From a virus: a stretch of 24,879 nucleotides of DNA. This document shows, piece after piece, positions 3,246 to 17,934 of this stretch. The DNA lies in the IMG/VR virus record IMGVR_UViG_3300025449_000052, positions 1-24,879 of that record; one strand, written 5' to 3'. How positions within the stretch are numbered: position 1 is the first letter of the stretch; every line of letters starts with the position of its first letter. The notes below the pieces were generated by a model. The model searched no databases. It was not told the origin of the DNA and saw only the letters and a list, made by a program, of their open reading frames with translations. A program made the translations under genes and the position numbers.

Positions 3246-3841
3246 GTTCCACAGATTCTTTCGCATTGGTGCATCACTGCAATGCGCTGCTCTGCACCAA
3301 ATAATCCCCCATTGATGATTTCTGTGAGTTTGTTGTAATTTTTGGCCTGTGCAGCCTCATTGCACTTATGCGTTTTCCAATACCAGCCACCAATTTGTGC
3401 AGCATATTTTGGTGTGCGTGCCAGGTCAGGATTGTGGACCAGATCAATGCCCAATGCTTGGCCAGCATGGTAAAAATTATCGTGCCCAGTCAACTGACAA
3501 ATTGCTGATCCTCTAAACCTCCAGCCATCTCCTGATGCCTCATCTCGATTGCCCATCCGATTTGAATAAATGTGATTGGCAATTTTTTCTGGTTGATGGG
3601 CATACTTTAAAGCCTCATCCATCGATGGAAACCGCTTTGGCCACAATTTCATCAGCGTCTCTGGCCGATAATTTAAATTCTCACTCAAATCTTTAAAGTG
3701 ATTTGACTCATATGAGAATTGGCCAATGAAACACGCCTGTTCTTCAAGTGTTGAAATGCCCCATCGATCAAATGTGTCATTGAGTGGGATCGTCCAAACT
3801 GGATCGATTTTCAGCTCGATCAGCTGCTCTGATGTAATCAT
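3242..3841 (-). CDS. Endolysin, glycoside hydrolase family 19
   Basis: A 199-residue enzyme resembling GH19 (chitinase-like) phage endolysins, which cut the glycan strands of peptidoglycan. The family landmarks are all present: FSYESNHF with the likely acid E45, SENLNY with E54, then RMGNRDEASGDGWRFRGS (about residues 95-112), the substrate-loop QLTGHDN (116-122), and INGGLFG (176-182). There is no signal peptide or membrane anchor and no added cell-wall-binding domain, so export would depend on a holin. The start overlaps the i-spanin stop by ATGA (3838-3841). It is the last gene of the long leftward block and meets the rightward early genes end to end with no terminator between them. The first motif has YES where HES is usual. 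Confidence 0.93.
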   Translation of the reverse strand: MITSEQLIELKIDPVWTIPLNDTFDRWGISTLEEQACFIGQFSYESNHFKDLSENLNYRPETLMKLWPKRFPSMDEALKYAHQPEKIANHIYSNRMGNRDEASGDGWRFRGSAICQLTGHDNFYHAGQALGIDLVHNPDLARTPKYAAQIGGWYWKTHKCNEAAQAKNYNKLTEIINGGLFGAEQRIAVMHQCERICGT

Positions 3842-4425
3842 TTCACGCCCTCATTGACTGTTTGCATCACTTGGTTATAGGTGGCAATGCAACTGTTGAG
3901 CTGGATGATGGCATTGTCTCCATCTGCTGCGATTTGGACAATATCTTTAAGAGCCTGTCTTGAAGACTCGGCTCCATTGGTTGTATTTCCGCTGGCAGTG
4001 GTGGCATCTGAATTGGCTTGTAAGGCACAACTGGTGGGGAGCTGCAGCCGACCAGCATCGATGTCAGCATCAATGCTGCTTTGCTTAGATTTGTTTTCAT
4101 CTTTTGATTTTCTGAGTGCTGCGCCAGTTTGCGCCAGCTTTTTGTTCAGCTTGGATTCTTTGGCTCTTGCTTCTTGATTAAGCCTGTCAATTTCAACTTG
4201 ATCTTCAGCCATGCGTCTTTGATAACCATGATGATCGCTGACATAATAACCTCCTGTAATGACCAAAAAAATTCCAAGCACTTTTAATATAAGTGCATGG
4301 GCCTTCAGCATTGGTAGAAACCCCACCAAATATGAAAGAGTGTATGCAATCACTCCACCGATCAGTGCAATGATTGCAATGTAATAAAACAAATCATCAA
4401 AAAACCATGAAAGCCAACTAAACAT
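3838..4425 (-). CDS. Rz: Inner-membrane spanin subunit (Rz-like)
   Basis: A 195-residue protein with an N-terminal hydrophobic region, a coiled-coil body rich in E, K, R and Q (about residues 70-118), then GRLQLPTSC, a segment typical of Rz proteins, and a soluble C-terminal end. In the family the protein sits in the inner membrane, spans the periplasm and pairs with a lipoprotein to disrupt the outer membrane. Here a second frame within the gene encodes that lipoprotein (3867-4100), as in lambda Rz/Rz1. Unusually, the N-terminus shows two hydrophobic segments (about 15-37 and 46-62) separated by KAHALILK rather than one. Positive-inside reasoning puts the body in the periplasm. It overlaps the holin-like gene by 8 bases and the endolysin by 4. 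Confidence 0.82.
   Translation of the reverse strand: MFSWLSWFFDDLFYYIAIIALIGGVIAYTLSYLVGFLPMLKAHALILKVLGIFLVITGGYYVSDHHGYQRRMAEDQVEIDRLNQEARAKESKLNKKLAQTGAALRKSKDENKSKQSSIDADIDAGRLQLPTSCALQANSDATTASGNTTNGAESSRQALKDIVQIAADGDNAIIQLNSCIATYNQVMQTVNEGVK
3867..4100 (-). CDS. Rz1: Outer-membrane spanin lipoprotein (Rz1-like), nested in Rz
   Basis: A 77-residue frame lying wholly inside the i-spanin gene in another frame. It starts MKTNLSK, has a hydrophobic stretch and a lipobox LVGC with the lipid-attachment cysteine at 19, then a proline-rich stretch (VVPYKPIQMPPLP) typical of o-spanins, and a short helical C-terminus. After processing it would sit in the inner leaflet of the outer membrane and bind the Rz C-terminus. 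The ribosome site is weak, as is common for nested Rz1 genes. The combination of position, lipobox and proline-rich body makes a chance ORF unlikely. Confidence 0.85.
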   Translation of the reverse strand: MKTNLSKAALMLTSMLVGCSSPPVVPYKPIQMPPLPAEIQPMEPSLQDRLLKILSKSQQMETMPSSSSTVALPPITK

Positions 4426-6127: not shown

Positions 6128-6565
6128 TTAAAACAATTCCAATGCCTTGACCACCTCATCAGGATTGACAAATGCATGATGTTTGTATTCTTGGTCTTCC
6201 CACCACAAAAACTGGTCTTTGGCCAGATAATCCCGACTTTTAATCAAATTGACATTCTCTGGATGGCCAAAGATCAATGGATCGGATACTGACCAAAGCA
6301 CAATGCCAGGTTTTTTTTGTATGTATCCCAAATGCTGAAAGAATGAATCGCATGAAATCCATGTCCGACATTGCATCAACAATTCTTTTAATTCATTTAA
6401 TGGCAAATCGGGTCTGAAGTCTGGCCATATTTGCTTTTCACCACTGACACCAACTTGTATTACTTTTTCTTTAATTTGCATCAATAAAACTGACCAATAT
6501 GGGTAATTTTTAGGGTTTTCCCGACCATTCATCAGCTTTTTTGAGTATGGGGAAACAATGATCAT
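6128..6565 (-). CDS. C-terminal half of a GT9-like glycosyltransferase
   Basis: A 145-residue protein that resembles only the second Rossmann domain of GT9/heptosyltransferase-type enzymes, the domain that holds the nucleotide-sugar. The visible landmarks are VIQVGVSGEKQIWPDF (about 35-50), then SCDSFFQHLGY (71-81), in which Asp-Ser and a downstream His match the family's DS..H motif, and a KKPGIVLWS plus FGHPENVNL run. The first Rossmann domain is missing here but appears at the end of the preceding gene, whose stop overlaps this start by ATGA. The two proteins would presumably pair to form one active site. The sugar and acceptor are unknown. Confidence 0.7.
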   Translation of the reverse strand: MIIVSPYSKKLMNGRENPKNYPYWSVLLMQIKEKVIQVGVSGEKQIWPDFRPDLPLNELKELLMQCRTWISCDSFFQHLGYIQKKPGIVLWSVSDPLIFGHPENVNLIKSRDYLAKDQFLWWEDQEYKHHAFVNPDEVVKALELF

Positions 6566-7536
6566 AAGTACATCTTTCTGAATGCTGCATTCAATGAGTC
6601 AGTCCATTTCCACTGCGCCATCTTCAAATATATATTCCATTGGTCGATGTCACCAAACAATGCTTTGGCTGCAGCAATCGATTCGCCTAGCACGATGTCT
6701 GGATAGCAGCTGAACACAATTGGATTTTTAATGTAAGGCAATATTTCAGAAAATACCAAATGATCACCCATGCCACAATTGAGCACAACAATTGTGTTAT
6801 TTTTAAACTTTTGAAAGTTTTGAAATATTTGCTCATCATGCGCATACATTGATTGATCAGTCTCTGACCTAATGCCACCACTGGGATTTTTCAAATGCCA
6901 AGTGACCGCATTGGGCACCACATAAAGATCATATCCTTTTTGATGTAAAGCATTGCTAAACAATGTTTCTTCCCTGTGGGCCACTTTTGAAAGCCCCAAA
7001 TGATAATCCACAATGCCAGCTCGATACAAAAATGAGCAATGCAAATGCTCGACCTTTTTGCGTTTGTGAATATATTTCCATTGGATGTTTGGCTCTGCAT
7101 CGATGTTGGCCATGGTGGCCGTTGGAAATGAATTCTCAAACTGCAATGGTGGTGTCAATATCGATCCACCAACTGCGCCCAAATTGGGATCATGCAGCGT
7201 CCAGCTGAACAATTCATGCAGCACATTGGCCTCTGGAATGGCATCATCATCCATGCGCCAAACCCATTTATATCCCATTGTGTTGGCCGCTTGATGGTTG
7301 TGGTGTGTGCCTTTTTTAGCAGCAAACCTCCATTCCCATTCGATGCCTTTGATGTCCATCATTTGAAACAGATTTTTATAAATCAGCTCATCTCTGACAT
7401 CTCTTGGATTTTCATTGTCATCAAAAATGACCACTTTGTCTGGCCGTTTGGTCTGATTGATGATGGCAGCCAAAGCCAATGGCAGCGTTGTGTCATATCG
7501 GCCTCGAGTGCCAATGCTGCATAAAACCTTATCCAC
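6562..7536 (-). CDS. GT-A glycosyltransferase fused to the N-terminal half of a GT9-like enzyme
   Basis: A 324-residue protein. Residues 1-240 look like a family 2-type GT-A glycosyltransferase: VLCSIGTRGRYDTTLPLAL, VVIFDDN (35-41), the metal-binding triad DDD (96-98), a candidate catalytic HREE (187-190), and HLK (214-216). Residues 245-324 are different: IVVLNCGMGDHLVFSEILPY is the glycine-rich loop that begins GT9-type enzymes, followed by IVFSCYPDI and ending AAFRKMYL. The second half of that enzyme is the next gene. The start is a GTG at 7536, 8 bases inside the methyltransferase gene, with AGGTGG just upstream. It would transfer a sugar from a nucleotide donor in the cytoplasm to a virion or cell-surface acceptor. 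Confidence 0.82.
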   Translation of the reverse strand: MDKVLCSIGTRGRYDTTLPLALAAIINQTKRPDKVVIFDDNENPRDVRDELIYKNLFQMMDIKGIEWEWRFAAKKGTHHNHQAANTMGYKWVWRMDDDAIPEANVLHELFSWTLHDPNLGAVGGSILTPPLQFENSFPTATMANIDAEPNIQWKYIHKRKKVEHLHCSFLYRAGIVDYHLGLSKVAHREETLFSNALHQKGYDLYVVPNAVTWHLKNPSGGIRSETDQSMYAHDEQIFQNFQKFKNNTIVVLNCGMGDHLVFSEILPYIKNPIVFSCYPDIVLGESIAAAKALFGDIDQWNIYLKMAQWKWTDSLNAAFRKMYL

Positions 7537-8182
7537 GATCCCACCTCAGAATCATCAAATTAAATCGATTGTGTTCAGTGATTGATCTTGGCTCTGGTGT
7601 TATTGCACCATGTTCGCTGATGTATTCCACATCAAAATCAAAGAAATTGGTTTCATTGAGGCCATGCAATTTGTGGTGTTCGCCCCAAAAGCCTGGTGGC
7701 TCATTCCATGGCACTGTGATCAATAATCGATTGCAATGCTTTTTCAGCTTTTCAACAATGTCCAAGCCATTGTCCAAATGTTCGATCACTTCAAAAGCAA
7801 TAATGGTGTCAAACTGTGCCAGCTGGATTTCATTGATGTCAGCACATGAAAACTTGATGTTTTCACCCCATTGCTGATCTTGAGCCACATCGATGATGAT
7901 GGGGTCATAATCCAATCCCAAATACTCGATGTCATTGGGTAAAAATTGAGTGCCAAATCCAGTGCTGCAGCCAATTTCCAAAATCTTTTTGCCACGCAAA
8001 TTTCGATTGGCCCACATATATCGTGTGGCCTCTCTAGGATAAACTGGATCGCCTTTCAGAAAAACTGCACGTTCATAATTGTTTGTGAGTTTCCATCGAT
8101 AATATTCTGGATTGTGCTGCTTGGCAAAATTCAGCTCATTGATCAAGAGCATTTGCTCCCATGTTTTGTTTTGTATTGTCAT
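7529..8182 (-). CDS. Class I SAM-dependent methyltransferase
   Basis: A 217-residue enzyme with the SAM-binding Rossmann motifs: motif I ILEIGCSTGFG (67-77), motif II acidic Asp in LGLDYD (88-93), CADINE (113-118) and post-motif EVIEHL (131-136), followed by LLITVPWNEPPGFWG. The EVIEHL and VPWNEP parts are of the UbiG/small-molecule type rather than the DNA methyltransferase type; there is no DPPY or NPPY. It is the first gene of the sugar module, and the glycosyltransferase start overlaps its stop by 8 bases. An AGGAT ribosome site precedes the ATG. The likely substrate is a sugar or a sugar-linked group, by context. O-methylation of a finished glycan would be a reasonable job but is not shown. 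Confidence 0.85.
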   Translation of the reverse strand: MTIQNKTWEQMLLINELNFAKQHNPEYYRWKLTNNYERAVFLKGDPVYPREATRYMWANRNLRGKKILEIGCSTGFGTQFLPNDIEYLGLDYDPIIIDVAQDQQWGENIKFSCADINEIQLAQFDTIIAFEVIEHLDNGLDIVEKLKKHCNRLLITVPWNEPPGFWGEHHKLHGLNETNFFDFDVEYISEHGAITPEPRSITEHNRFNLMILRWDRG

Positions 8183-8294: not shown

Positions 8295-8786
8295 TTATAC
8301 TGTTTTGTTTTCAACAATTGGGGCAACATAATCAGGATTATGAGGCCAATTATTCCATGTTCTTGGGTCTAAATTTCCACTTGTAATTGTTTCAGGAATG
8401 TCTCTCAATGTTTGCCTGTATGTTGCCCAAGCTGCTTTTTTGGGGCTTGGATTGTCTGGTGTTTGCGTGTAATCACACGCAGTCAATAAAGCATTTCTAG
8501 TGGCTCTGATGCCAGCCAATGCACTTGCTTTGTTTGCCGTGATTTGGTCAGCAGTCAACTCTACAACTTTAACCAAATCTACCATTTCATTGTTAATGAT
8601 TGGTGTTGATGGCTCAAGAGCTTGTGTCAATGGGTCGTATGTCAAATACAAATTGCATTGCATACATGAGTTTTCTGTTAACCACTCAGCATTTGGTCCT
8701 GATGATGGAAACGATACATTGGGAAACAAATCCCTGTAATCACCCACTTGAGTGACTGCGTTATTAGAAACAATTGCAATTTGCAT
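8295..8786 (-). CDS. Tail fibre assembly chaperone-like protein (Phage_tail_APC type)
   Basis: A 163-residue protein whose C-terminal part has the familiar segment IRATRNALLTACDYTQTPD, then KKAAWATYRQTLRDIP, and the NNWPHNPDY end. This pattern marks tail assembly chaperone or fibre assembly proteins coded right after tail fibre genes, which help fold or trimerise fibres. The N-terminal half (MQIAIVSNNAVTQVGDYRDLF) forms the small domain usual for this group. An AGGTAAACC site precedes the ATG, and the gene follows the LamG protein by 8 bases, so the LamG or Gly-rich fibre is its likely client. Confidence 0.85.
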   Translation of the reverse strand: MQIAIVSNNAVTQVGDYRDLFPNVSFPSSGPNAEWLTENSCMQCNLYLTYDPLTQALEPSTPIINNEMVDLVKVVELTADQITANKASALAGIRATRNALLTACDYTQTPDNPSPKKAAWATYRQTLRDIPETITSGNLDPRTWNNWPHNPDYVAPIVENKTV

Positions 8787-8794
8787 GGTTTACC

Positions 8795-10774
8795 TCAATA
8801 GTTGGGGAATGCTGATGTTGGTGGTGTAAAGTTGGATGTGTATCTTGCATAGCCATTAGTGATTCTTATGTCATCAAGATAGCCTTGAGTGTAATATGTT
8901 GAACCACTATATATAGCTTTACCTAATAACAATGGCCCAGATATAATTGCTGAAGATGTACTACCTGTTTTTGCTATCCCATTTACATAAAGTGTTATTG
9001 ATGTTCCACTTCTTACAATTGCAAGATGATACCAATTATTAATTGGTAGACCAGTTGCACTAGAGTAACTAACATTATTTATATAATATGTGGGTAGTTG
9101 GCTTGTTCCAATATAAAGATACAAACCATTAGATGCAAAGTCTGGACCAATTTGTATACTTGCAGAATTTACACTTGCATTTGATTGATAAAACCATCCT
9201 TCAACAGTAAAGTCACCTGACAATGTTGTTATTGTTGAATTTGGATAACTTACAAAATCACTTGTTGCATTATTTAAATATATAGAACCAGTACCATATT
9301 TTTTTACACTTGTACTGATTTGTGCTGATCCACCTGTAACACCATCATTCATCATGGCATTGTCGTAAATGCCAGCGTTTTGCATACTTAACAATAATTG
9401 AGTATTAGTAATTGCACTCAATGGAGCAGTTGGAGGAGTAAAATTAGTTGTATAAACTGCACTCCCGTTAACAATTCTAAAATCACTTGAGTATCCATAA
9501 GAAAATCCACTGCCACCACTTACTGCTTCAGCAAACAAATAAAAACCATTTGTTTGATAAATTGCACTAGAAGATGTTGTCGTTGTTCCAGCAACTCCAT
9601 TTATATATGGAGTAAAAGTATTTCCATTACGAACCAATGCAACATGAATCCAAGTATTCAATGGAGCAGAGTTTGCACCCATACTAACAGCACTAGCAAT
9701 ATTCCAAGAACTTCCATTACTACTAAGATAATACAAAAAACTTCCAGAGTTATAAACAATTCCAAACGAATCTGTTGTTGTTCCTCTAACAATATTAAAA
9801 CTTGATGTAGATGTTAAATACACCCACAATTCAACAGTAAAATTATTTGTAGAAAGATATAAAACAGAATTATTTGGTGTTACTAAATAATCAGTACTTC
9901 CATTAAAGTACCCACTACCACCATAAACACTTGTTGAATATGCTTGTGATGATGTAGGTAAAAATGGGTTAAATCGTTGTACTGATGGTGCGCCACTTGT
10001 TGTTATTGTAAAATTGTTTGTACTGTTATCAATAAAACGATTAGATTGACAAGTCAATAATTGTGTATTTGTTATTGCTGTTAAAGGTGAAGTTGGAGGT
10101 GTGAAATTTGATGTATAAACAGCAGTGCCTTTAACTATTCGCAAATTAGAAATATAACCAGGAAAATAATAAAATGTAGATGCGTATCTTGCACCAATAG
10201 ATGATGTCGTAGGAGTTACTGAATAATTTGTAGAATCTGTTCCACTACCTATTGATACTCCATTTTGATATATAGTTCCAGTTGTTCCATTTTTTACATA
10301 AGCAACGTGATACCAAGTATTTGTGTTCCATGTTGCTGAACCTGAAATTTCAGTTCCTGATAAACTATTCCAATAAAGCACTCCAGATGTAATATCACCC
10401 CACAAAAAAATTGGTGCAGTGGTATGACTTGCATCTCTACAATCTAAAAGAAAATTTGTAGTTGGAGCCGTAGTAAAATAAATCCAACATTCAACTGTAA
10501 AGTTGCCAGAACCAAATGCAACACTACTTCCAGATGTCCAAGTTAAATAAGAAGTAGAACCATCAAAATAATTACTCCACAAAGTTCCATAAGGACTAAA
10601 TGAACCTTGTGTAGCGTATCCATTACGAGTAATCGTAAACGCATTAGATGATGAATCTACAAACGTATTGTTTTGAGCACCATTTGTCCCATCACCATGC
10701 AATAAAGCAGTGACGTAATTAAACTGTGGGTCTGCAACCCCAGTTGGACCTGATATTTTTGCTGCACTAAACAT
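8795..10774 (-). CDS. Tail-associated protein with three LamG/concanavalin A-like domains
   Basis: A 659-residue protein starting MFSAAKISGPTG at 10774, where ATG overlaps the previous stop as TAATG; the frame is open 16 codons further but with no reason to use it. It holds three copies of a laminin G-like jelly-roll domain, about residues 50-250, 270-455 and 480-655. Each has a GNFTVE or GDFTVE strand, a WYHVAYVKNG or WIHVALVRNG turn and an ending like LRIVKGTAVYTSNFTPP. LamG domains bind sugars or proteins, and phages carry them on fibres as receptor binders. There is no signal peptide. It is clearly more AT-rich than its neighbours (two 60-base lines counted gave 28 and 35 percent GC), a sign of separate origin. 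Confidence 0.88.
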   Translation of the reverse strand: MFSAAKISGPTGVADPQFNYVTALLHGDGTNGAQNNTFVDSSSNAFTITRNGYATQGSFSPYGTLWSNYFDGSTSYLTWTSGSSVAFGSGNFTVECWIYFTTAPTTNFLLDCRDASHTTAPIFLWGDITSGVLYWNSLSGTEISGSATWNTNTWYHVAYVKNGTTGTIYQNGVSIGSGTDSTNYSVTPTTSSIGARYASTFYYFPGYISNLRIVKGTAVYTSNFTPPTSPLTAITNTQLLTCQSNRFIDNSTNNFTITTSGAPSVQRFNPFLPTSSQAYSTSVYGGSGYFNGSTDYLVTPNNSVLYLSTNNFTVELWVYLTSTSSFNIVRGTTTDSFGIVYNSGSFLYYLSSNGSSWNIASAVSMGANSAPLNTWIHVALVRNGNTFTPYINGVAGTTTTSSSAIYQTNGFYLFAEAVSGGSGFSYGYSSDFRIVNGSAVYTTNFTPPTAPLSAITNTQLLLSMQNAGIYDNAMMNDGVTGGSAQISTSVKKYGTGSIYLNNATSDFVSYPNSTITTLSGDFTVEGWFYQSNASVNSASIQIGPDFASNGLYLYIGTSQLPTYYINNVSYSSATGLPINNWYHLAIVRSGTSITLYVNGIAKTGSTSSAIISGPLLLGKAIYSGSTYYTQGYLDDIRITNGYARYTSNFTPPTSAFPNY

Positions 10775-11574
10775 TAGTAATTCAATCCAAAAACAGAGCC
10801 ATAAGTATTTGTGCCATCGCAATAAAAATTGAAGATGTCATACTTACCGCTGGTTGATGTTGCTGTAGGTGTTGTACCACCTGACCATTTCAACGTACCA
10901 CCACCCGCCCAAGTCAATGTGTATGAACCTGAATACGTCACAATGATGGTGTAAGACTTACCAGCTACCGAGCTTGGCAACGTAATTGTTCCATTACCAT
11001 TGAGTGATATTTCTTGGATCGTTCCATTAGCCAAAGAAATGCTGAATGCAGTACCAGCAGATGGTGCATAAAGTGTTTCAACATAATTGGTGATTGTTGG
11101 ATTGGCGTTCAACATCACCGATCCAGTACCAGTTGATGTTGTTGTACCAGTGCCGCCATTTGCAACTGCTAAAGTGCCAATCACTCCAGTTGTCAAATTA
11201 ACTGTACCAAGTGTTTGCTTTAAATTGCCATAAGTGTCAAATGTGCCATCAGTTGACCATGTATCACCAACATTCAATGTGACTTTAACAATATTTCTTA
11301 AAGTGCTTGAATTGTTCAATGTGACTGTGATGGTCACCGCAGCAGTATCTGAATTTTCAATGTAAATGGTTTTTATCAATCTGCGAGTGGATGCAGCTGG
11401 TGAAGCCACCATGGTCACTTGAGTTGTGCCATTCAATGCGCCATCGCTTGAACCCTCAACAAAAGTTGTTCCATTGTCATCAGAATATGCAGTCACAAAA
11501 GATGGGTTTGTGGTGGCTGCAGCACCAGACATTTGGACTGTGATTGATTTGCTGGTTGTATCTAAAACTAACAT
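10774..11574 (-). CDS. Tail fibre-type structural protein
   Basis: A 266-residue protein, rich in Thr, Ser and Asn and mostly beta by appearance. It contains LAVANGGTGTTTSTGTGSVM (about residues 135-154), the NGGTG fibre motif found in many tail fibre proteins at the join between shaft and tip, followed by a C-terminal domain with TLTWAGGGTLKWSGG and NFYCDGTNTYGSVF. This end resembles small C-terminal fibre modules that cap the shaft. The N-terminus (MLVLDTTSKSITVQMSGAA) forms a separate domain. A AAGGG site precedes the ATG, and the stop overlaps the LamG gene's start. Role: part of the receptor-binding apparatus. Confidence 0.78.
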   Translation of the reverse strand: MLVLDTTSKSITVQMSGAAATTNPSFVTAYSDDNGTTFVEGSSDGALNGTTQVTMVASPAASTRRLIKTIYIENSDTAAVTITVTLNNSSTLRNIVKVTLNVGDTWSTDGTFDTYGNLKQTLGTVNLTTGVIGTLAVANGGTGTTTSTGTGSVMLNANPTITNYVETLYAPSAGTAFSISLANGTIQEISLNGNGTITLPSSVAGKSYTIIVTYSGSYTLTWAGGGTLKWSGGTTPTATSTSGKYDIFNFYCDGTNTYGSVFGLNY

Positions 11575-11583
11575 GATTTACCC

Positions 11584-13584
11584 TTATCTTGAAATGAACC
11601 AAGAGAATGCTTGTGCATTGGCTCCAGCACCTGAGTACCCTGAGTATCCACTAAAACCGCTAAAACCACTGATTCCTGACCCAGAAAATCCAGAGTATCC
11701 GCTTATACCAGACCCACTATACCCGCTAAATCCAGAGTATCCGCTGATTCCTGACCCAGAAAATCCAGAGTATCCGCTTATTCCTGATCCACTGTACCCG
11801 CTAAATCCACTGTATCCGCTTACACCAGACCCACTGTACCCACTAAATCCTGACCAACCAGACACACCAGACCCGCTGTACCCGCTAAATCCAGAGTATC
11901 CACTGATTCCTGACCCACTATAGCCGCTATAGCCTGAAGTCCCAGACGCTCCAACTTGGCCACTAAAACCGCTGAATCCAGAAATCCCGCTAAATCCTGA
12001 AATACCAGAATATCCACTATACCCTGATGTACCTACTGCACCCGAAAGAGTGATTGACCAGCTGCTGAATGATGCACCACCATTGACATAAGTCATATTG
12101 ACTGTCAATGAAGTTCCAGAAAACGCTGTGATCAAGCCTTCCATGTATTGGCTTGGCACTGATGTGGCATATACCCTGACATATTGGCCAACTGCAAATG
12201 CTGTGGCACTTGCGTCCAAGTTTGTGGTAAATGATTTGCTTCCAAGTCCCAATGAATTGGAACCTGATCCAGTCAATCCAGAATATCCCAATCCAGAATA
12301 GCCACTATAACCTGACGTCCCTGACGCCCCAACTTGGCCCGACCAGCCCGAAATCCCGCTATAACCTGACGTCCCTTGCGCCCCTGAATAGCCAGACCAA
12401 CCAGACACGCCTGACCCGCTATAGCCACTAAAACCCGACCAGCCAGACACGCCTGACCCGCTATAGCCACTAAAACCCGACCAGCCAGACACGCCTGACC
12501 CGCTATAGCCACTAAAACCTGACCAACCCGAAATGCCAGACCAACCTGACGCCCCTGACGTCCCCAATTGGCCAGACCAACCTGACGTCCCGCTAAAACC
12601 TGACCAACCAGACACGCCTGAACCACTATAGCCCGACCAGCCTGATATACCTGACCCGCTAAAACCTGACCAACCTGACGTCCCGCTATAACCGCTAAAA
12701 CCTGACGTCCCCGATTGACCAGCTGGGCCAACTATTTGGCCAACATTGTTCCAGGTCGTTCCACTCCAAACGTACAAATCGCCATTGGATGTGACAATGT
12801 ATGCATCATTGGGATTGTTGCCTGTCGCTGGCAAATTGGCTGGTGTGGCCACTGTGCCTTTGATATTGATTGATGTTCCTTGCTGGCCCGAGTACCCGCT
12901 AAATCCCGAGTACCCTGAAATTCCTGACCCGCTATAGCCACTGATCCCGCTAAAACCAGACCAGCCTGAAGTCCCAGACGCCCCTACTGCCCCGCTAAAA
13001 CCAGACCAACCTGACGTGCCTGACGTCCCTTGCGCCCCATTTTGGCCCGAAATCCCGCTAAAACCTGACCAGCCAGAAATGCCCGACCAGCCACTGGCTC
13101 CAGACCCGCTGAAACCTGAATAGCCAGATATACCTGAACCGCTATAGCCCGACCAACCTGAAGTCCCTGACGCCCCAACTTGTCCCGACCAACCACTAAA
13201 CCCTGATGTCCCTTGCGCCCCTGAATAGCCTGACCAACCAGACGTTCCTGACCCGCTATAGCCCGAGTACCCTGAAATCCCTGACCCGCTATAACCGCTA
13301 AAGCCCGACTGGCCCGACCAACCTGACGTCCCTACTTGGCCTGACCAGCCGCTAAAACCTGACGTCCCTTGCGCCCCTGAATAGCCCGACCAGCCAGACG
13401 TCCCAGAGCCTGAATAGCCTGAAATACCTGACCCGCTATAGCCGCTAAAACCGCTAAAACCCGAGTACCCGCTAAATCCAGACACACCAAAACTTGATTT
13501 GTTTACAGTAATGATTTGTGGAGCTGGCGGTGTGACCTGAATATTGACATTGTTGTCATTGATAACTGTGACTTTTGTATTCAT
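11584..13584 (-). CDS. Collagen-like Gly-X-Ser repeat tail fibre
   Basis: A 666-residue protein built mainly of Gly-X-Y triplets in which Y is usually Ser and X is Trp, Tyr, Phe, Ile, Thr or Val (GWSGFSGYSG). By eye about 19 triplets are cut short to Gly-Ser, giving evenly placed SGSG breaks. Two globular inserts interrupt the repeat, about residues 233-288 (NPNDAYIVTSNGDLYVW, a common phage fibre insert) and 428-520 (SKSFTTNL, VGQYVRVYA, MEGLITA). The first 30 residues form a non-repeat attachment region. There is only one Gly-Pro triplet, so this is not a standard Pro-rich collagen. It is probably a trimeric side or tip fibre. The ATG at 13584 follows GGAG closely. Confidence 0.85.
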   Translation of the reverse strand: MNTKVTVINDNNVNIQVTPPAPQIITVNKSSFGVSGFSGYSGFSGFSGYSGSGISGYSGSGTSGWSGYSGAQGTSGFSGWSGQVGTSGWSGQSGFSGYSGSGISGYSGYSGSGTSGWSGYSGAQGTSGFSGWSGQVGASGTSGWSGYSGSGISGYSGFSGSGASGWSGISGWSGFSGISGQNGAQGTSGTSGWSGFSGAVGASGTSGWSGFSGISGYSGSGISGYSGFSGYSGQQGTSINIKGTVATPANLPATGNNPNDAYIVTSNGDLYVWSGTTWNNVGQIVGPAGQSGTSGFSGYSGTSGWSGFSGSGISGWSGYSGSGVSGWSGFSGTSGWSGQLGTSGASGWSGISGWSGFSGYSGSGVSGWSGFSGYSGSGVSGWSGFSGYSGSGVSGWSGYSGAQGTSGYSGISGWSGQVGASGTSGYSGYSGLGYSGLTGSGSNSLGLGSKSFTTNLDASATAFAVGQYVRVYATSVPSQYMEGLITAFSGTSLTVNMTYVNGGASFSSWSITLSGAVGTSGYSGYSGISGFSGISGFSGFSGQVGASGTSGYSGYSGSGISGYSGFSGYSGSGVSGWSGFSGYSGSGVSGYSGFSGYSGSGISGYSGFSGSGISGYSGFSGYSGSGISGYSGFSGSGISGFSGFSGYSGYSGAGANAQAFSWFISR
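12401..12519. repeat. 42-base tandem repeat within the fibre gene
   Basis: Two identical 42-base copies (12401-12442, 12443-12484) are followed by a third identical over its first 35 bases (12485-12519). Each codes for 14 residues of Gly-X-Ser repeat including one SGSG break. Identity at the base level, beyond what the protein repeat needs, points to recent duplication and makes this a spot where the number of repeats can change by recombination or slippage. Confidence 0.85.
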
Positions 13585-13587
13585 TCC

Positions 13588-14070
13588 TTACTCCACCACA
13601 ATGCCATCAGACCGCACAATGAAGAATAAAAAAATAATGATATCTTCAGCTGGGGTCGATCCATTGGCTGGAAAACTGATCTTGATTCGGCCCGAATAGC
13701 CAATGCCATTGGGGTCTGCAATGTCCAAGCCTGGATCGCTTGATGCCAGGCCCCATGCACTATCATCCATTACCAATGTAAACGATCCATTGGTATAGTT
13801 GATATTGGTAATTGTAAGTGAAATGGGTGTGGGAGTTGGTGTGTAATCGCCAATTGTAAATGTCAAACCATTTCTGGTGTCAATCACATTGGTCAAAACT
13901 CTGCGAATGATCTGGGCATCAATAGTGGCCCCAGTCAATGGCAAAACACCAGCATCATTGGTAATGAAAAGATTCCAAAATGCTTTTTGATTCCAGACCA
14001 GCTCGCCTGAAAGAATTTGATTATCAAAGCCCGATATTTGAGACAATGAATTTTTATTAAATACTGCCAT
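13588..14070 (-). CDS. Hypothetical tail structural protein before the fibre gene
   Basis: A 160-residue protein with a beta-rich look: NQKAFWNLFITNDAG, GATIDAQIIRRVLTN, then LTITNINYTNGSFTLVMDD and a C-terminal SGRIKISFPANG and DIIIFLFFIVRSDG. It has no signal peptide or transmembrane helix (the IIIFLFF run is short and inside a beta context). A AAGGG site precedes the ATG. It is placed between the J-like tip protein and the Gly-X-Ser fibre, so it is likely a fibre-attachment or baseplate-type connector. A loose resemblance to baseplate upper-protein-like modules is possible but not firm. Confidence 0.68.
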   Translation of the reverse strand: MAVFNKNSLSQISGFDNQILSGELVWNQKAFWNLFITNDAGVLPLTGATIDAQIIRRVLTNVIDTRNGLTFTIGDYTPTPTPISLTITNINYTNGSFTLVMDDSAWGLASSDPGLDIADPNGIGYSGRIKISFPANGSTPAEDIIIFLFFIVRSDGIVVE

Positions 14071-14463: not shown

Positions 14464-17400
14464 TTATGTGTAATAGGGTAAATAATAAGTGCCACCAGCA
14501 TAACTGACTTGAATCAATCCAGCCAATGTGTGGCTGCCAACTGTAGTAAATCCAACAACTGAAATTCCATTCCAATTTTGAGCATTTAAATTGTTGACCA
14601 ATGTACTGTTGTTAATAGTCATTTGACCTGACAATTCCAAACCATATCCAGTTAAAGATACTGCTTGGATTGCTGGTCCTGATACTGTACCAACATTAAT
14701 TCCAGTACCACTTGATCCACCAATATTTAATCCAACTCCTGATCCTGTGACGTTTATTAAAACGCCATTTCCTCCTGAATAATTATAAAAATTTGCAACA
14801 TATGAATAGGGGTTTGAACTTTCACCATAAATGGCATATGAATTTGACCATGTTGTTCCTGTGTCAAATCCAAATAATCCAGCTTGACCATTACCATTGG
14901 CCTCTCCATATACACCAAATTTTTGAGCATGAGTTGTATTGGCCACAATAGCTGCATATCCACCAGATGCACTATTGGCTCCATTGAATACCGCTTGCCC
15001 AGTAATATTAATATTTGAACTGCCTGTAATATTTAAATTTGATCCATTAAATAAAATATTATTTGATGCATTGCCCAAAGCAAAAAGCCCAGATGAATAA
15101 ATAACTGCGCCTGATCCAGTCATTGAGCTGCCACTAATTGCAGCATTATTGGATAAAAATGTTCCAGTTACAGTTAAATTTCCAGTATTTGTTGAAAGAG
15201 CCGATAAATTACCAACTTTGAATGAAGATAAATAAGGCACTCCCCAAATTATGTTTCCAGTAGTTGGGTTATATACACCATCTGATTGCCAAAGAGACTG
15301 TCCAGCGGTCAATGTTGGTACTGTATAACTCCATGTGCCACCGCCCCATGATCCGCTTGGTGGTACAGATGTGCTGCCAGATGTTGTGATTGTAAATGGT
15401 GTTGTATTTAATGCAGCAGATGATGTTACTGTATAGCACGTTGTTGCAACTGCACCAGTTGATCCAACATACCCAAATGGAACAATACTGGCTGCAGACC
15501 AATTGATTGTTGTTGTGACTGCAGTCACTGAATCAGTCAAAGTAACTGATGCTGCAAATAATGTATATCCTACACTTGGTGAATCAGAAATTGATGTAAA
15601 CCATCCGCTTGGTGGTGATGAAATGGTGTTGTTTGACCATGTATACGTTGATGTGCCTGAAATAGTTGGTATTGATGCTGCCCATTGATATACAGTGGCT
15701 TTGGCCATTTGCACGCCATTTACTGTTAATCCATTTTGTCCAGCCACATATTTTGAAAATCCACTTGACCAACTGACTGATGTGGATGTTGCAGTTGAAA
15801 CATCAGTAACTTGTTTGCTTACCACCCAAAGTGAAACGCCAGACGTTCCAGGATTTGTTGGTACTGTGGTTTGCCATCCATTTCCACCTGTATAACTAGA
15901 ATTTGCTCCAGTGGCCCATGTGTATGTTGATGTGCCAGATGGATCGCCTGGTGTTGATGATGACCATTGATACAAATAGCTGGTTGCATATTTATTGGCT
16001 GGAATCCCAGAAATTCCAGAAAAACCACTATACCCTGACGCCCCACTGGCCCCTGACGCCCCACTGGCCCCAGACATCCCCACTGGTGCCCAAACAAATC
16101 CAGCACTAATTGGGCTTAATGTAGATAAGCTGGTACCACTGCCAACTGTGTATGCAAAATAATAAGTCCCAGCTGGCAGCACTACATCAACAAACGTATA
16201 GTATGTATTATTTGGAACTGGCAAACTGTTCGCCGTTTGCACGTTGGCCCAAACTTTCCAATCTGATCCAGATGGTGTGGCCACTGTTGTATAGTACAAA
16301 GTGCCGTTTGTGACTCGGCCAGTTACTGGCACAAACACTTGCACGTTGAAATATGGAATATTGGCAGTTTCAAAATGAGCCGTCACTGTTGGTGCAGTCA
16401 ATGAACTGAAAAATGTTGGTGCAGCCAATCCACTGTGACTAGTTGGTGTGTATGCAGTAATGCTTGATGTTGCATATACATTGGGATCATATTGCATCAT
16501 TTGGAATGATGCCCCAAGTGATCCATCAGGCAGCGACGCTTCCTTGACTTGCATCACTCTGAATTGCTGATTTGACCAGCCATAGTAACTGTTGGTCACT
16601 GTTACCACATCACCAGCATTGACTTGAATGCCAGTGTAATTGGTGGAAAAACTGACAATCAAATCCAATCTGTTTTGCTCAAGCACACGATTTGCCAAAT
16701 ATTGAGCCGTGACGCTGCTATTGATCAAATCATATGAAATGGTGAATTTGTTGACTGGCTCATTTGGCAGCAGCAATCCTGATGGAGTTTGCAAATTCAC
16801 ATAACCTGGTTGATCTCGATTGCCCGAATCAATGAATCTGGCCTCGATCTGGTTGACCATTTGAGTGATGTCCAGCTCACTGACTGTGATGTCTGAAATG
16901 ATATTTGAATCATCAAATGAAAATGTGGGGGAAATGGCTTTGTTAACCACTACTGTCCAAAGGCCTGTGGCCACTTGATAAGACTGCCATGAATCGCAGC
17001 AATTCATCATCAAATCGATGTTTGACAATGCAGTCTGGCCAGTATCTAAAACACCATTGAATCTGTATCTTGGGATCGATGCTGATCCTCCACCAGCTGG
17101 TGTGTAAGTAATCAATTCATCAGAATATGCATTCAATGCAGTGGCTGATGCAGAGCTGACAAATTGACTTGAAACTGCTGCACCATAAACTGTGTTGGTC
17201 ATGTAGTCATACCAAACGTCACCAGGCTTTGCACATCCAGTGCCATTCAAATAATGGCTTACATGGAATGTGACTGGCTGCAGCGCAGTTGTTCCAAGTG
17301 AATTTGCATTATAAACCAGCTGCACAATGGCAAATGCAGTGCCGTTCATTTGTCGACCGCTGCTGACCCATTCTTGACCTGATGGAATGCCATTGGCCGT

Positions 17401-17934
17401 ACTCATCACCGCTGATGGCTGGTTTGATGTGTTGATGGGTGTGATCGTTCCAGTTTGTGATGATGTGTACAAACTGATGTACAAATGACCGCTGATTGTG
17501 GTGTCCACATTGCCAGCTTGATCCGTTAAACTCACCACTTTTGTTTGATCAGTGCTATCAAATGCAATGATCTGATCTTGATAATAAAAATTGCTGGTGT
17601 CAAATGAAAATTGGCCATTTGGGCTTATGCAGCTGATCACCATTACATAATACATTGACTCTTGATCTGTGGTCAGTACCGCATCACAAAATCTGCCACC
17701 AGTGTATGCATCACCATATACCAATGGAATGCCAGCCGTTGGATCAGGTGGCACTTGCTGCCTAATGTTATTTTGCTGGGATTGTGGAATATTGGGGGCA
17801 AAAAGCCTTGATGCCACAATCGACACTGCAAACGTGACCGCCATTTGCATGGCCCCAGCATATGTCAAAAACTCCAATTCATATGCACCAGTGACAATCG
17901 CTGCTGCAGTGAAGATAAAACTCAGTAATGACAT
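14464..17934 (-). CDS. Tail tip/central fibre protein (lambda J-like)
   Basis: A 1156-residue protein and the largest in the window. The N-terminal part has the IPLVYGDAYTGG segment (about residues 68-79) and the hub-domain pattern of J-type tip proteins (NSYYGWSNQQFRVMQVKEAS near 445-465). A fibronectin-type region follows (about 510-635), then a short Gly-X-Ser insert (GMSGASGASGASGASGYSG), two similar modules of about 80 residues beginning YLYQWSSS and TVYQWAAS, and a beta-rich end with many Asn/Ser/Gly, probably the receptor-facing part. Siphophage J proteins sit at the tail tip and decide host range. The first 45 residues are hydrophobic but lie in the normal place for J-type N-termini. 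An AAGGT site precedes the ATG. Confidence 0.85.
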   Translation of the reverse strand: MSLLSFIFTAAAIVTGAYELEFLTYAGAMQMAVTFAVSIVASRLFAPNIPQSQQNNIRQQVPPDPTAGIPLVYGDAYTGGRFCDAVLTTDQESMYYVMVISCISPNGQFSFDTSNFYYQDQIIAFDSTDQTKVVSLTDQAGNVDTTISGHLYISLYTSSQTGTITPINTSNQPSAVMSTANGIPSGQEWVSSGRQMNGTAFAIVQLVYNANSLGTTALQPVTFHVSHYLNGTGCAKPGDVWYDYMTNTVYGAAVSSQFVSSASATALNAYSDELITYTPAGGGSASIPRYRFNGVLDTGQTALSNIDLMMNCCDSWQSYQVATGLWTVVVNKAISPTFSFDDSNIISDITVSELDITQMVNQIEARFIDSGNRDQPGYVNLQTPSGLLLPNEPVNKFTISYDLINSSVTAQYLANRVLEQNRLDLIVSFSTNYTGIQVNAGDVVTVTNSYYGWSNQQFRVMQVKEASLPDGSLGASFQMMQYDPNVYATSSITAYTPTSHSGLAAPTFFSSLTAPTVTAHFETANIPYFNVQVFVPVTGRVTNGTLYYTTVATPSGSDWKVWANVQTANSLPVPNNTYYTFVDVVLPAGTYYFAYTVGSGTSLSTLSPISAGFVWAPVGMSGASGASGASGASGYSGFSGISGIPANKYATSYLYQWSSSTPGDPSGTSTYTWATGANSSYTGGNGWQTTVPTNPGTSGVSLWVVSKQVTDVSTATSTSVSWSSGFSKYVAGQNGLTVNGVQMAKATVYQWAASIPTISGTSTYTWSNNTISSPPSGWFTSISDSPSVGYTLFAASVTLTDSVTAVTTTINWSAASIVPFGYVGSTGAVATTCYTVTSSAALNTTPFTITTSGSTSVPPSGSWGGGTWSYTVPTLTAGQSLWQSDGVYNPTTGNIIWGVPYLSSFKVGNLSALSTNTGNLTVTGTFLSNNAAISGSSMTGSGAVIYSSGLFALGNASNNILFNGSNLNITGSSNINITGQAVFNGANSASGGYAAIVANTTHAQKFGVYGEANGNGQAGLFGFDTGTTWSNSYAIYGESSNPYSYVANFYNYSGGNGVLINVTGSGVGLNIGGSSGTGINVGTVSGPAIQAVSLTGYGLELSGQMTINNSTLVNNLNAQNWNGISVVGFTTVGSHTLAGLIQVSYAGGTYYLPYYT

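What the first reader, a model, noticed from the sequence alone, without database searches (positions are those of the whole stretch)
6128..8182. Three-gene sugar module placed between fibre and lysis genes
A SAM methyltransferase, a GT-A glycosyltransferase and a GT9-like enzyme are coded as one overlapping unit directly after the fibre genes. The fibre gene just upstream codes for hundreds of Ser in Gly-X-Ser triplets and many Thr, a natural O-glycan acceptor. A phage making glycosylated, methylated fibres would be of interest for immune or phage-resistance escape and adhesion. The alternative is modification of host lipopolysaccharide to block superinfection. Co-location is seen; the link to the fibre is inference.
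Basis: partly seen in the sequence, partly recalled or inferred. Interest (0 to 1): 0.6.

Follow-up and report, generated by a model that had tools for sequence, protein, structure and literature searches.

The report
Phage genes for sugar-coating serine fibres
Freshwater phages with a tail fibre built of Gly-X-Ser repeats carry a matching set of sugar-transfer genes, in many unrelated phages, so these viruses very probably decorate the serines of their own fibre with a (usually methylated) sugar chain, a kind of phage fibre modification I found no report of.

Summary
The three overlapping genes are real: a class I SAM methyltransferase (MT), a GT-A/GT2 glycosyltransferase, and the C-lobe of a GT9-type (WaaC/WaaF/TibC-like) enzyme. 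Correction: the GT9 is probably split. Its N-lobe, with an invariant GxGD motif, appears fused to the GT2 C-terminus, and the C-lobe is always the next, separate ORF (114/114; never fused). The Gly-X-Ser fibre lies 3.4 kb upstream in the window, but directly upstream in the isolate P19250A. Among relatives sharing the gene next to the fibre, module and Ser-fibre agree in 57/57 (35 both, 22 neither; at least 4 changes on the tree). In a lineage-free sample the GT2/GT9 family occurs in 16/22 records with Gly-aromatic-Ser fibres and 0/30 with Gly-aromatic-Thr fibres, which mostly carry other GT2s. A T4-like phage has the module about 80 kb from its Ser-fibre. Best explanation: late, cytosolic O-glycosylation of Y-position serines, with optional methylation. 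Host-LPS modification is less likely: no membrane anchor, and the module tracks the residue. Sugar, linkage and purpose remain untested. Novelty: new variant of virus-encoded virion and collagen-like glycosylation.

The parts
7529..8182 (-). SAM-dependent class I methyltransferase (MT), 217 aa, first gene of the module
   Evidence: Pfam Methyltransf_12 E 5.9e-11; present with 91 of 97 distinct GT2/GT9N genes that have enough upstream sequence; fused to GT2/GT9N in one ORF in 15 loci
6562..7536 (-). GT-A (GT2-type) glycosyltransferase, residues ~1-245, with a C-terminal ~80-residue domain that is probably the N-lobe of a GT9 enzyme
   Evidence: Pfam Glycos_transf_2 E 3.8e-6; invariant D96-D97-D98 and H187-R188-E189-E190 region; AlphaFold2 pLDDT 93.8; ppGalNAc-T fold matches up to Z 19.0, tied with several other GT-A enzymes; invariant G255-x-G257-D258 aligns with the GD of WaaC/WaaF in a statistically weak profile alignment
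6128..6565 (-). GT9 C-lobe (nucleotide-sugar binding half), 145 aa, start overlaps the GT2 stop (ATGA)
   Evidence: AlphaFold2 pLDDT 95.5; VIA Z 15.0 to WaaF residues 182-342, 14.6 WaaC, 14.4 TibC; D73-S-x-x-x-H78 aligns with the VDTGLSH of WaaC; follows the GT2/GT9N gene in 114 of 114
11584..13584 (-). Gly-X-Ser collagen-like fibre, 666 aa: the proposed acceptor
   Evidence: 141 Gly-X-X triplets in runs of 4 or more; Y position Ser 112, Thr 0; X mostly Tyr/Phe/Trp/Thr; Pro only once; Y-position Ser written by both codon families, TCN 65 and AGY 47; Pfam Collagen 2e-41
13588..14070 (-). 160-aa tail protein next to the fibre, used as the neutral marker for the co-occurrence test
10774..11574 (-). 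second fibre-type protein, Thr-rich (20%), no Gly-X-X run
8795..10822 (-). LamG / concanavalin-like distal fibre protein, three lectin-like domains
   Evidence: Laminin_G_3 E 6.7e-51, three stretches
8295..8786 (-). tail fibre assembly chaperone
   Evidence: Phage_tail_APC E 3.3e-15

Best explanation
A phage-encoded O-glycosylation module for the phage's own Gly-X-Ser fibre. Late in infection, in the host cytosol, one of the two glycosyltransferases transfers a sugar from a host nucleotide-sugar to Ser in the Y position of the Gly-X-Ser repeats, and the other extends it; the methyltransferase, where present, methylates the glycan. The GT9 works as two chains: a probable N-lobe with the candidate catalytic Asp (GxGD) tethered to the GT2, and a separately translated C-lobe that binds the donor. 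Shown: gene order, domains, the universal split, co-occurrence with Ser fibres, Ser-over-Thr specificity of that co-occurrence. Inferred: that the fibre is the acceptor, that Ser is the site, the order of sugars, methylation of the sugar. Guess: the GT9 part may be the Ser transferase, by analogy with TibC, and the sugars may stabilise a proline-poor collagen-like helix or shield the fibre.
For: (1) Lineage test: relatives sharing the neighbouring tail gene: 35 with module and Ser fibre, 22 with neither, 0 mixed; at least 4 changes on the tree, 4 of 4 independent pairs agree. (2) Module-negative records have no GT2b (0/20) and no PF00535 at all (0/19); the sister clade of one module-positive group (L097, L098) and L101 have Gly-Pro-Thr collagen instead. 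(3) Lineage-free test by DNA pattern: GT2b in 16/22 Ser-type against 0/30 Thr-type records of 20 kb or more, Fisher 7e-9, not corrected for relatedness. (4) All GT2b loci with at least about 5 kb upstream carry the Ser fibre. (5) Unlinked case: 122.7-kb T4-like record G006 has GT2a, GT2b/GT9N and GT9C about 80 kb from a 409-triplet Ser fibre. (6) Y position 81.5% Ser and 3.2% Thr over 20,601 triplets of module-positive loci; in the window Ser is kept by two codon families that cannot interconvert in one step. (7) Domain fusions MT+GT2b, GT2a+MT and GT2a+MT+GT2b tie the enzymes together. (8) No segment hydrophobic enough for a membrane anchor in the three proteins. (9) Precedent: TibC, a GT9-fold enzyme, heptosylates Ser and not Thr of an adhesin (PMC4358343).
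Against: No glycan, mass or activity data. 6 of 22 Ser-type records, and several other Ser-fibre contigs (L203, L207, L214, L229, L249, L257), show no GT2b; some are fragments and 4 of the 6 carry other GT2s, but exceptions remain. Co-occurrence could partly reflect a cassette moving as one piece. The sign test on 4 independent changes cannot reach significance (p 0.125). The N-lobe assignment is weak by sequence.
Confidence: 0.78

Rival explanations
1. The module modifies host LPS or another surface glycan to block superinfection or change the receptor.
For: GT9 relatives WaaC/WaaF act on LPS core; papers on aquatic phages usually read fibre-linked glycosyltransferases this way (PMC7029224).
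Against: Presence tracks the amino acid in the fibre (Ser, not Thr) and is lost with the Ser fibre. No membrane-anchored or flippase-like partner and no long hydrophobic segment. Placed in the late structural operon. Only 5 relatives in 84,980 cellular genomes, so it was not recently borrowed from host LPS loci that this scan could see.
Confidence: 0.1
2. Fibre gene and sugar genes form one mobile cassette and travel together, but the enzymes act on another virion protein (e.g. LamG distal fibre or tail tip) or on something else.
For: In most loci they lie within 8 kb; fibre regions are recombination hot spots. The neighbouring fibres are also Ser/Thr rich.
Against: Thr-type cassettes in the same place never carry this family; the order of fibre and module is reversed for one of two Ser fibres in L259; in G006 they are about 80 kb apart. 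LamG and the second fibre gene are absent from many module-bearing loci, so they are not the common partner.
Confidence: 0.08
3. DNA modification: the enzymes glycosylate phage DNA to resist restriction.
For: A common role given to phage glycosyltransferases (PMC10202952).
Against: No hydroxymethyl-pyrimidine or other base-modification gene recognised among the window proteins scanned, though the record is a fragment; location with fibre genes; Ser-fibre specificity.
Confidence: 0.03

Closest known systems
TibC / bacterial autotransporter heptosyltransferases (GT9-fold)
   Same: GT9-type C-lobe (Z 14.4); acceptor proposed to be Ser but not Thr in a repetitive surface adhesin; TibC has a reduced four-stranded N-lobe (PMC4358343)
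   Different: Here split into two chains, N-lobe fused to a GT2, no iron finger or beta-barrel seen, donor unknown, phage-encoded, works with a methyltransferase
Virion glycosylation of mycobacteriophages Che8, Corndog, Myrna
   Same: Phage-encoded glycosyltransferases modify virion proteins (as described in PMC12363180 and PMC12619734; original paper not read)
   Different: There capsid and tail-tube C-termini; here proposed on a collagen-like fibre by a different enzyme set
Mimivirus L230 collagen hydroxylase/glucosyltransferase
   Same: Virus modifies its own proline-poor collagen-like protein with sugar (PMC9614988)
   Different: L230 acts on hydroxylysine; here direct Ser O-glycosylation is proposed; unrelated enzyme architecture
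BclA exosporium collagen-like glycoprotein of Bacillus
   Same: Glycosylated bacterial collagen-like surface protein (PMC8968730)
   Different: Cellular, spore coat, not a phage fibre; enzymes not compared here
Methylophilaceae phage P19250A genes 0023-0026
   Same: Same Ser fibre followed directly by MT, GT2/GT9N and GT9C at 58-68% identity
   Different: Annotated only as 'tail length tape-measure protein' and three hypothetical proteins; no LamG fibre match

Membership tests
GT9 (heptosyltransferase-like) | GT-B C-lobe with the D-T/S-x-x-x-H nucleotide-sugar motif | tested here: met
   Z 15.0 to WaaF C-domain, rmsd 2.1 over 127 residues; D73-S-x-x-x-H78 aligned with WaaC VDTGLSH
GT9 (heptosyltransferase-like) | Rossmann-like N-lobe with catalytic Asp in a GD motif after strand 1 | tested here: inconclusive
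   GxGD invariant in 45 sequences at the strand-helix junction; aligned with the WaaF/WaaC GD but with probability 1.4%; no PDB sequence hit
GT9 (heptosyltransferase-like) | single polypeptide carrying both lobes | tested here: not met
   0 ORFs with both halves, C-lobe always the next ORF: a split variant
GT2 (GT-A) | GT-A fold with D-x-D-type metal motif | tested here: met
   PF00535 over the gathering score; invariant D96-D98; GT-A matches at Z 17-19
Polypeptide GalNAc-transferases (GT27) | closest fold, with ricin-type lectin domain | tested here: inconclusive
   top rows, but within about 1 Z of other GT-A families; no lectin domain in the 324-residue model
SAM methyltransferase class I | SAM-binding Rossmann motif (E-x-G-C-x-x-G) | tested here: met
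   Pfam; LEIGCSTGFG in the sequence
Phage virion glycosylation system | glycan found on a virion protein and lost without the enzyme | not testable with these tools
   needs virions and mass spectrometry
O-antigen / LPS conversion cassette (gtrA-gtrB-gtr type) | membrane flippase and membrane-anchored glycosyltransferase | tested here: not met
   no segment with 19-residue hydropathy above 1.3 in the three proteins; gene content

The most novel reading that the evidence does not exclude
Aquatic phages use a residue code: fibres of Gly-aromatic-Ser are served by a dedicated split-GT9/GT2/methyltransferase module and fibres of Gly-aromatic-Thr by other GT2 enzymes, so that a dense methylated O-glycan coat replaces proline in holding a collagen-like phage fibre together.
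Probability: 0.3. Interest if true: 0.85.

Novelty: new variant of a known kind. Interest (0 to 1): 0.68.

Why it matters
If true, phages from freshwater metagenomes carry a self-contained O-glycosylation system for their own adhesin, built around a two-chain GT9 enzyme, and hundreds of viral contigs encode it. It would give a function to genes now called hypothetical, explain why fibre-linked glycosyltransferases need not mean host-LPS change, suggest how a collagen-like fibre almost without proline may be stabilised, and offer enzymes that may O-glycosylate Gly-X-Ser repeats in bacteria.

Tried and rejected
N-lobe as GT9 by sequence: a PDB profile search gave no GT9 hit and profile comparison with WaaC/F/U was weak, though the GD aligned; kept as probable, not shown. 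Programmed frameshift joining the two GT9 halves: the junction is ATGA in nearly all and TAA with a downstream restart in a few, and I saw no obvious slippery run in the window; stop-start re-initiation preferred, not tested. Cellular origin: one genome scan gave 5 relatives, mostly MAG contigs that look viral. Family searches beyond these gave no specific name for the enzymes (only weak hits far below cut-offs). Promoters and terminators in the region no more than in shuffles. No Rfam hit. Literature: searches for phage, collagen-like and glycosylation found no report of this pairing; open-access papers only.

Full report
What is there. The window is a 24,879-base IMG/VR viral fragment, a siphophage-like relative of Methylophilaceae phage P19250A. 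On the - strand the order is head-tail connector, neck, tape measure, tail tip, a 160-aa tail protein, Gly-X-Ser fibre, a second fibre protein, LamG fibre, fibre chaperone, then the finding: methyltransferase (MT) 7529-8182, GT-A enzyme 6562-7536, GT9-like 6128-6565, then the lysis genes. MT and GT2 overlap by 8 bases, GT2 and GT9C by ATGA, and this arrangement is kept in relatives.

A split GT9. The third protein folds with high confidence (pLDDT 95.5) as the C-lobe of a GT9 enzyme: WaaF Z 15.0, WaaC 14.6, TibC 14.4, with the next group at Z 11 or less. The nucleotide-sugar motif D-S-x-x-x-H aligns with that of WaaC. A lone C-lobe should lack the catalytic Asp. The last ~80 residues of the GT2 protein carry an invariant G-x-G-D after a strand, where WaaC and WaaF have the Asp-bearing GD; profile comparison places them together but weakly, so this half is probable, not shown. 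No ORF in any locus contains both halves, and the C-lobe is the next ORF in 114 of 114 distinct genes, also in relatives at about 40% identity (L199, L267). I know of no described GT9 divided this way; this is from memory, not a search.

Variants. MT accompanies 91 of 97 distinct GT2b genes, and an additional GT2 (GT2a), often fused to the N-terminus of MT, 43 of 97. MT+GT2b fusions occur in 15 loci, and L259 has GT2a, MT and GT2b/GT9N in one protein. The core is therefore GT2b/GT9N + GT9C; MT and GT2a are accessories.

Is the fibre the partner? Test 1: starting from the neighbouring tail gene (13588-14070), I collected relatives irrespective of the module. Of 57 distinct contigs with enough downstream sequence, 35 have module and Ser fibre, 22 have neither, none is mixed. 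On the tree of that gene the state changes at least four times, and in four of four independent pairs both traits move together (four pairs cannot reach p 0.05). Module-negative records have no GT2b anywhere on the record (0/20) and no GT2-family protein at all (0/19). L097 and L098, the sister group of module-bearing L109, L111 and L114, carry Gly-Pro-Thr collagen instead.

Test 2, free of lineage: viral contigs with a DNA pattern for four Gly-[Tyr/Phe]-Ser-like triplets or Gly-[Tyr/Phe]-Thr were classed by the repeats they really encode, and records of 20 kb or more searched whole for GT2b. Ser-type: 16 of 22 (one weak hit in G046 counted as no; L281 classed by the same record's L191). Thr-type: 0 of 30. 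Fisher p 7e-9, uncorrected for relatedness. Thr-type records do carry other GT2 proteins (27 of 30), within about 5 kb of a Thr fibre in 10 of 15 regions read. So presence of some glycosyltransferase goes with repetitive hydroxyl fibres in general, and this family goes with Ser.

Test 3: linkage. In G006, a 122.7-kb T4-like record with a 409-triplet Ser fibre, GT2a, GT2b/GT9N and GT9C sit about 80 kb away from the fibre. This argues against mere hitch-hiking, though it is one case. A 494-kb record, G068, also has both.

Selection on Ser. Over module-positive loci the Y position is 81.5% Ser and 3.2% Thr (20,601 triplets). In the window the 112 Y-position serines use TCN 65 times and AGY 47 times, so the residue, not a copied DNA unit, is what is kept. 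X is mainly aromatic, and proline is found once: a poor collagen by ordinary rules.

How it most likely works. Late expression with the tail genes places soluble enzymes in the cytosol with newly made fibre. One GT primes Ser, the other extends, MT methylates. The GT9 part is an attractive Ser transferase because TibC, of the same fold, heptosylates Ser but not Thr in an adhesin (PMC4358343); but GT2b could equally prime (its fold also matches polypeptide GalNAc-transferases, tied with others). The donor is unknown. Purpose is open: helix stabilisation, protection from proteases or shielding, or binding.

Weak points. All evidence is comparative. Six of 22 Ser-type records lack GT2b; some are fragments, some have other GT2s. 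The LPS reading is not excluded by any single result.

Verdict.

Noticed in passing
L280, L296, L300, L321, L366, L417, L448 and other Thr-type loci: Phages with Gly-Tyr-Thr / Gly-Pro-Thr fibres carry other, often multi-domain GT2 proteins (ORFs of 500-1000 aa) near the fibre: possibly a second, Thr-specific fibre glycosylation system.
   Followed up: partly
L199 (contig CABMCB010000028.1, archaeal MAG LFW-28): A distant GT2b/GT9N (38%) and GT9C pair downstream of a 120-triplet Gly-X-Ser protein in a contig filed as archaeal; virus or cellular not settled.
   Followed up: no
window 8795-10822 and 10774-11574, against L008-L011: Relatives with 97-98% identical module proteins lack the LamG fibre and the second fibre gene: the distal fibre genes are swapped while the module stays.
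   Followed up: partly
window 3838-4425 with 3867-4100 nested: A small ORF with a lipobox-like start (LVGCSS) lies inside another reading frame of a membrane-anchored ORF next to the endolysin: looks like nested Rz/Rz1 spanins.
   Followed up: no
window 14464-17934, residues ~619-644: The tail-tip protein has its own short Gly-X-Ser run (9 triplets), as do several relatives.
   Followed up: no
L203, L207, L214, L216 (T4-like contigs): Very long Ser fibres (395-453 triplets, up to 2046 aa); only the largest record, G006, showed the module.
   Followed up: partly
L196-L198 (genome contigs): Contigs filed under Nitrosotalea, Mucilaginibacter and Opitutae MAGs carry the whole module at 62-66% identity and look like phage contigs binned into MAGs.
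   Followed up: no
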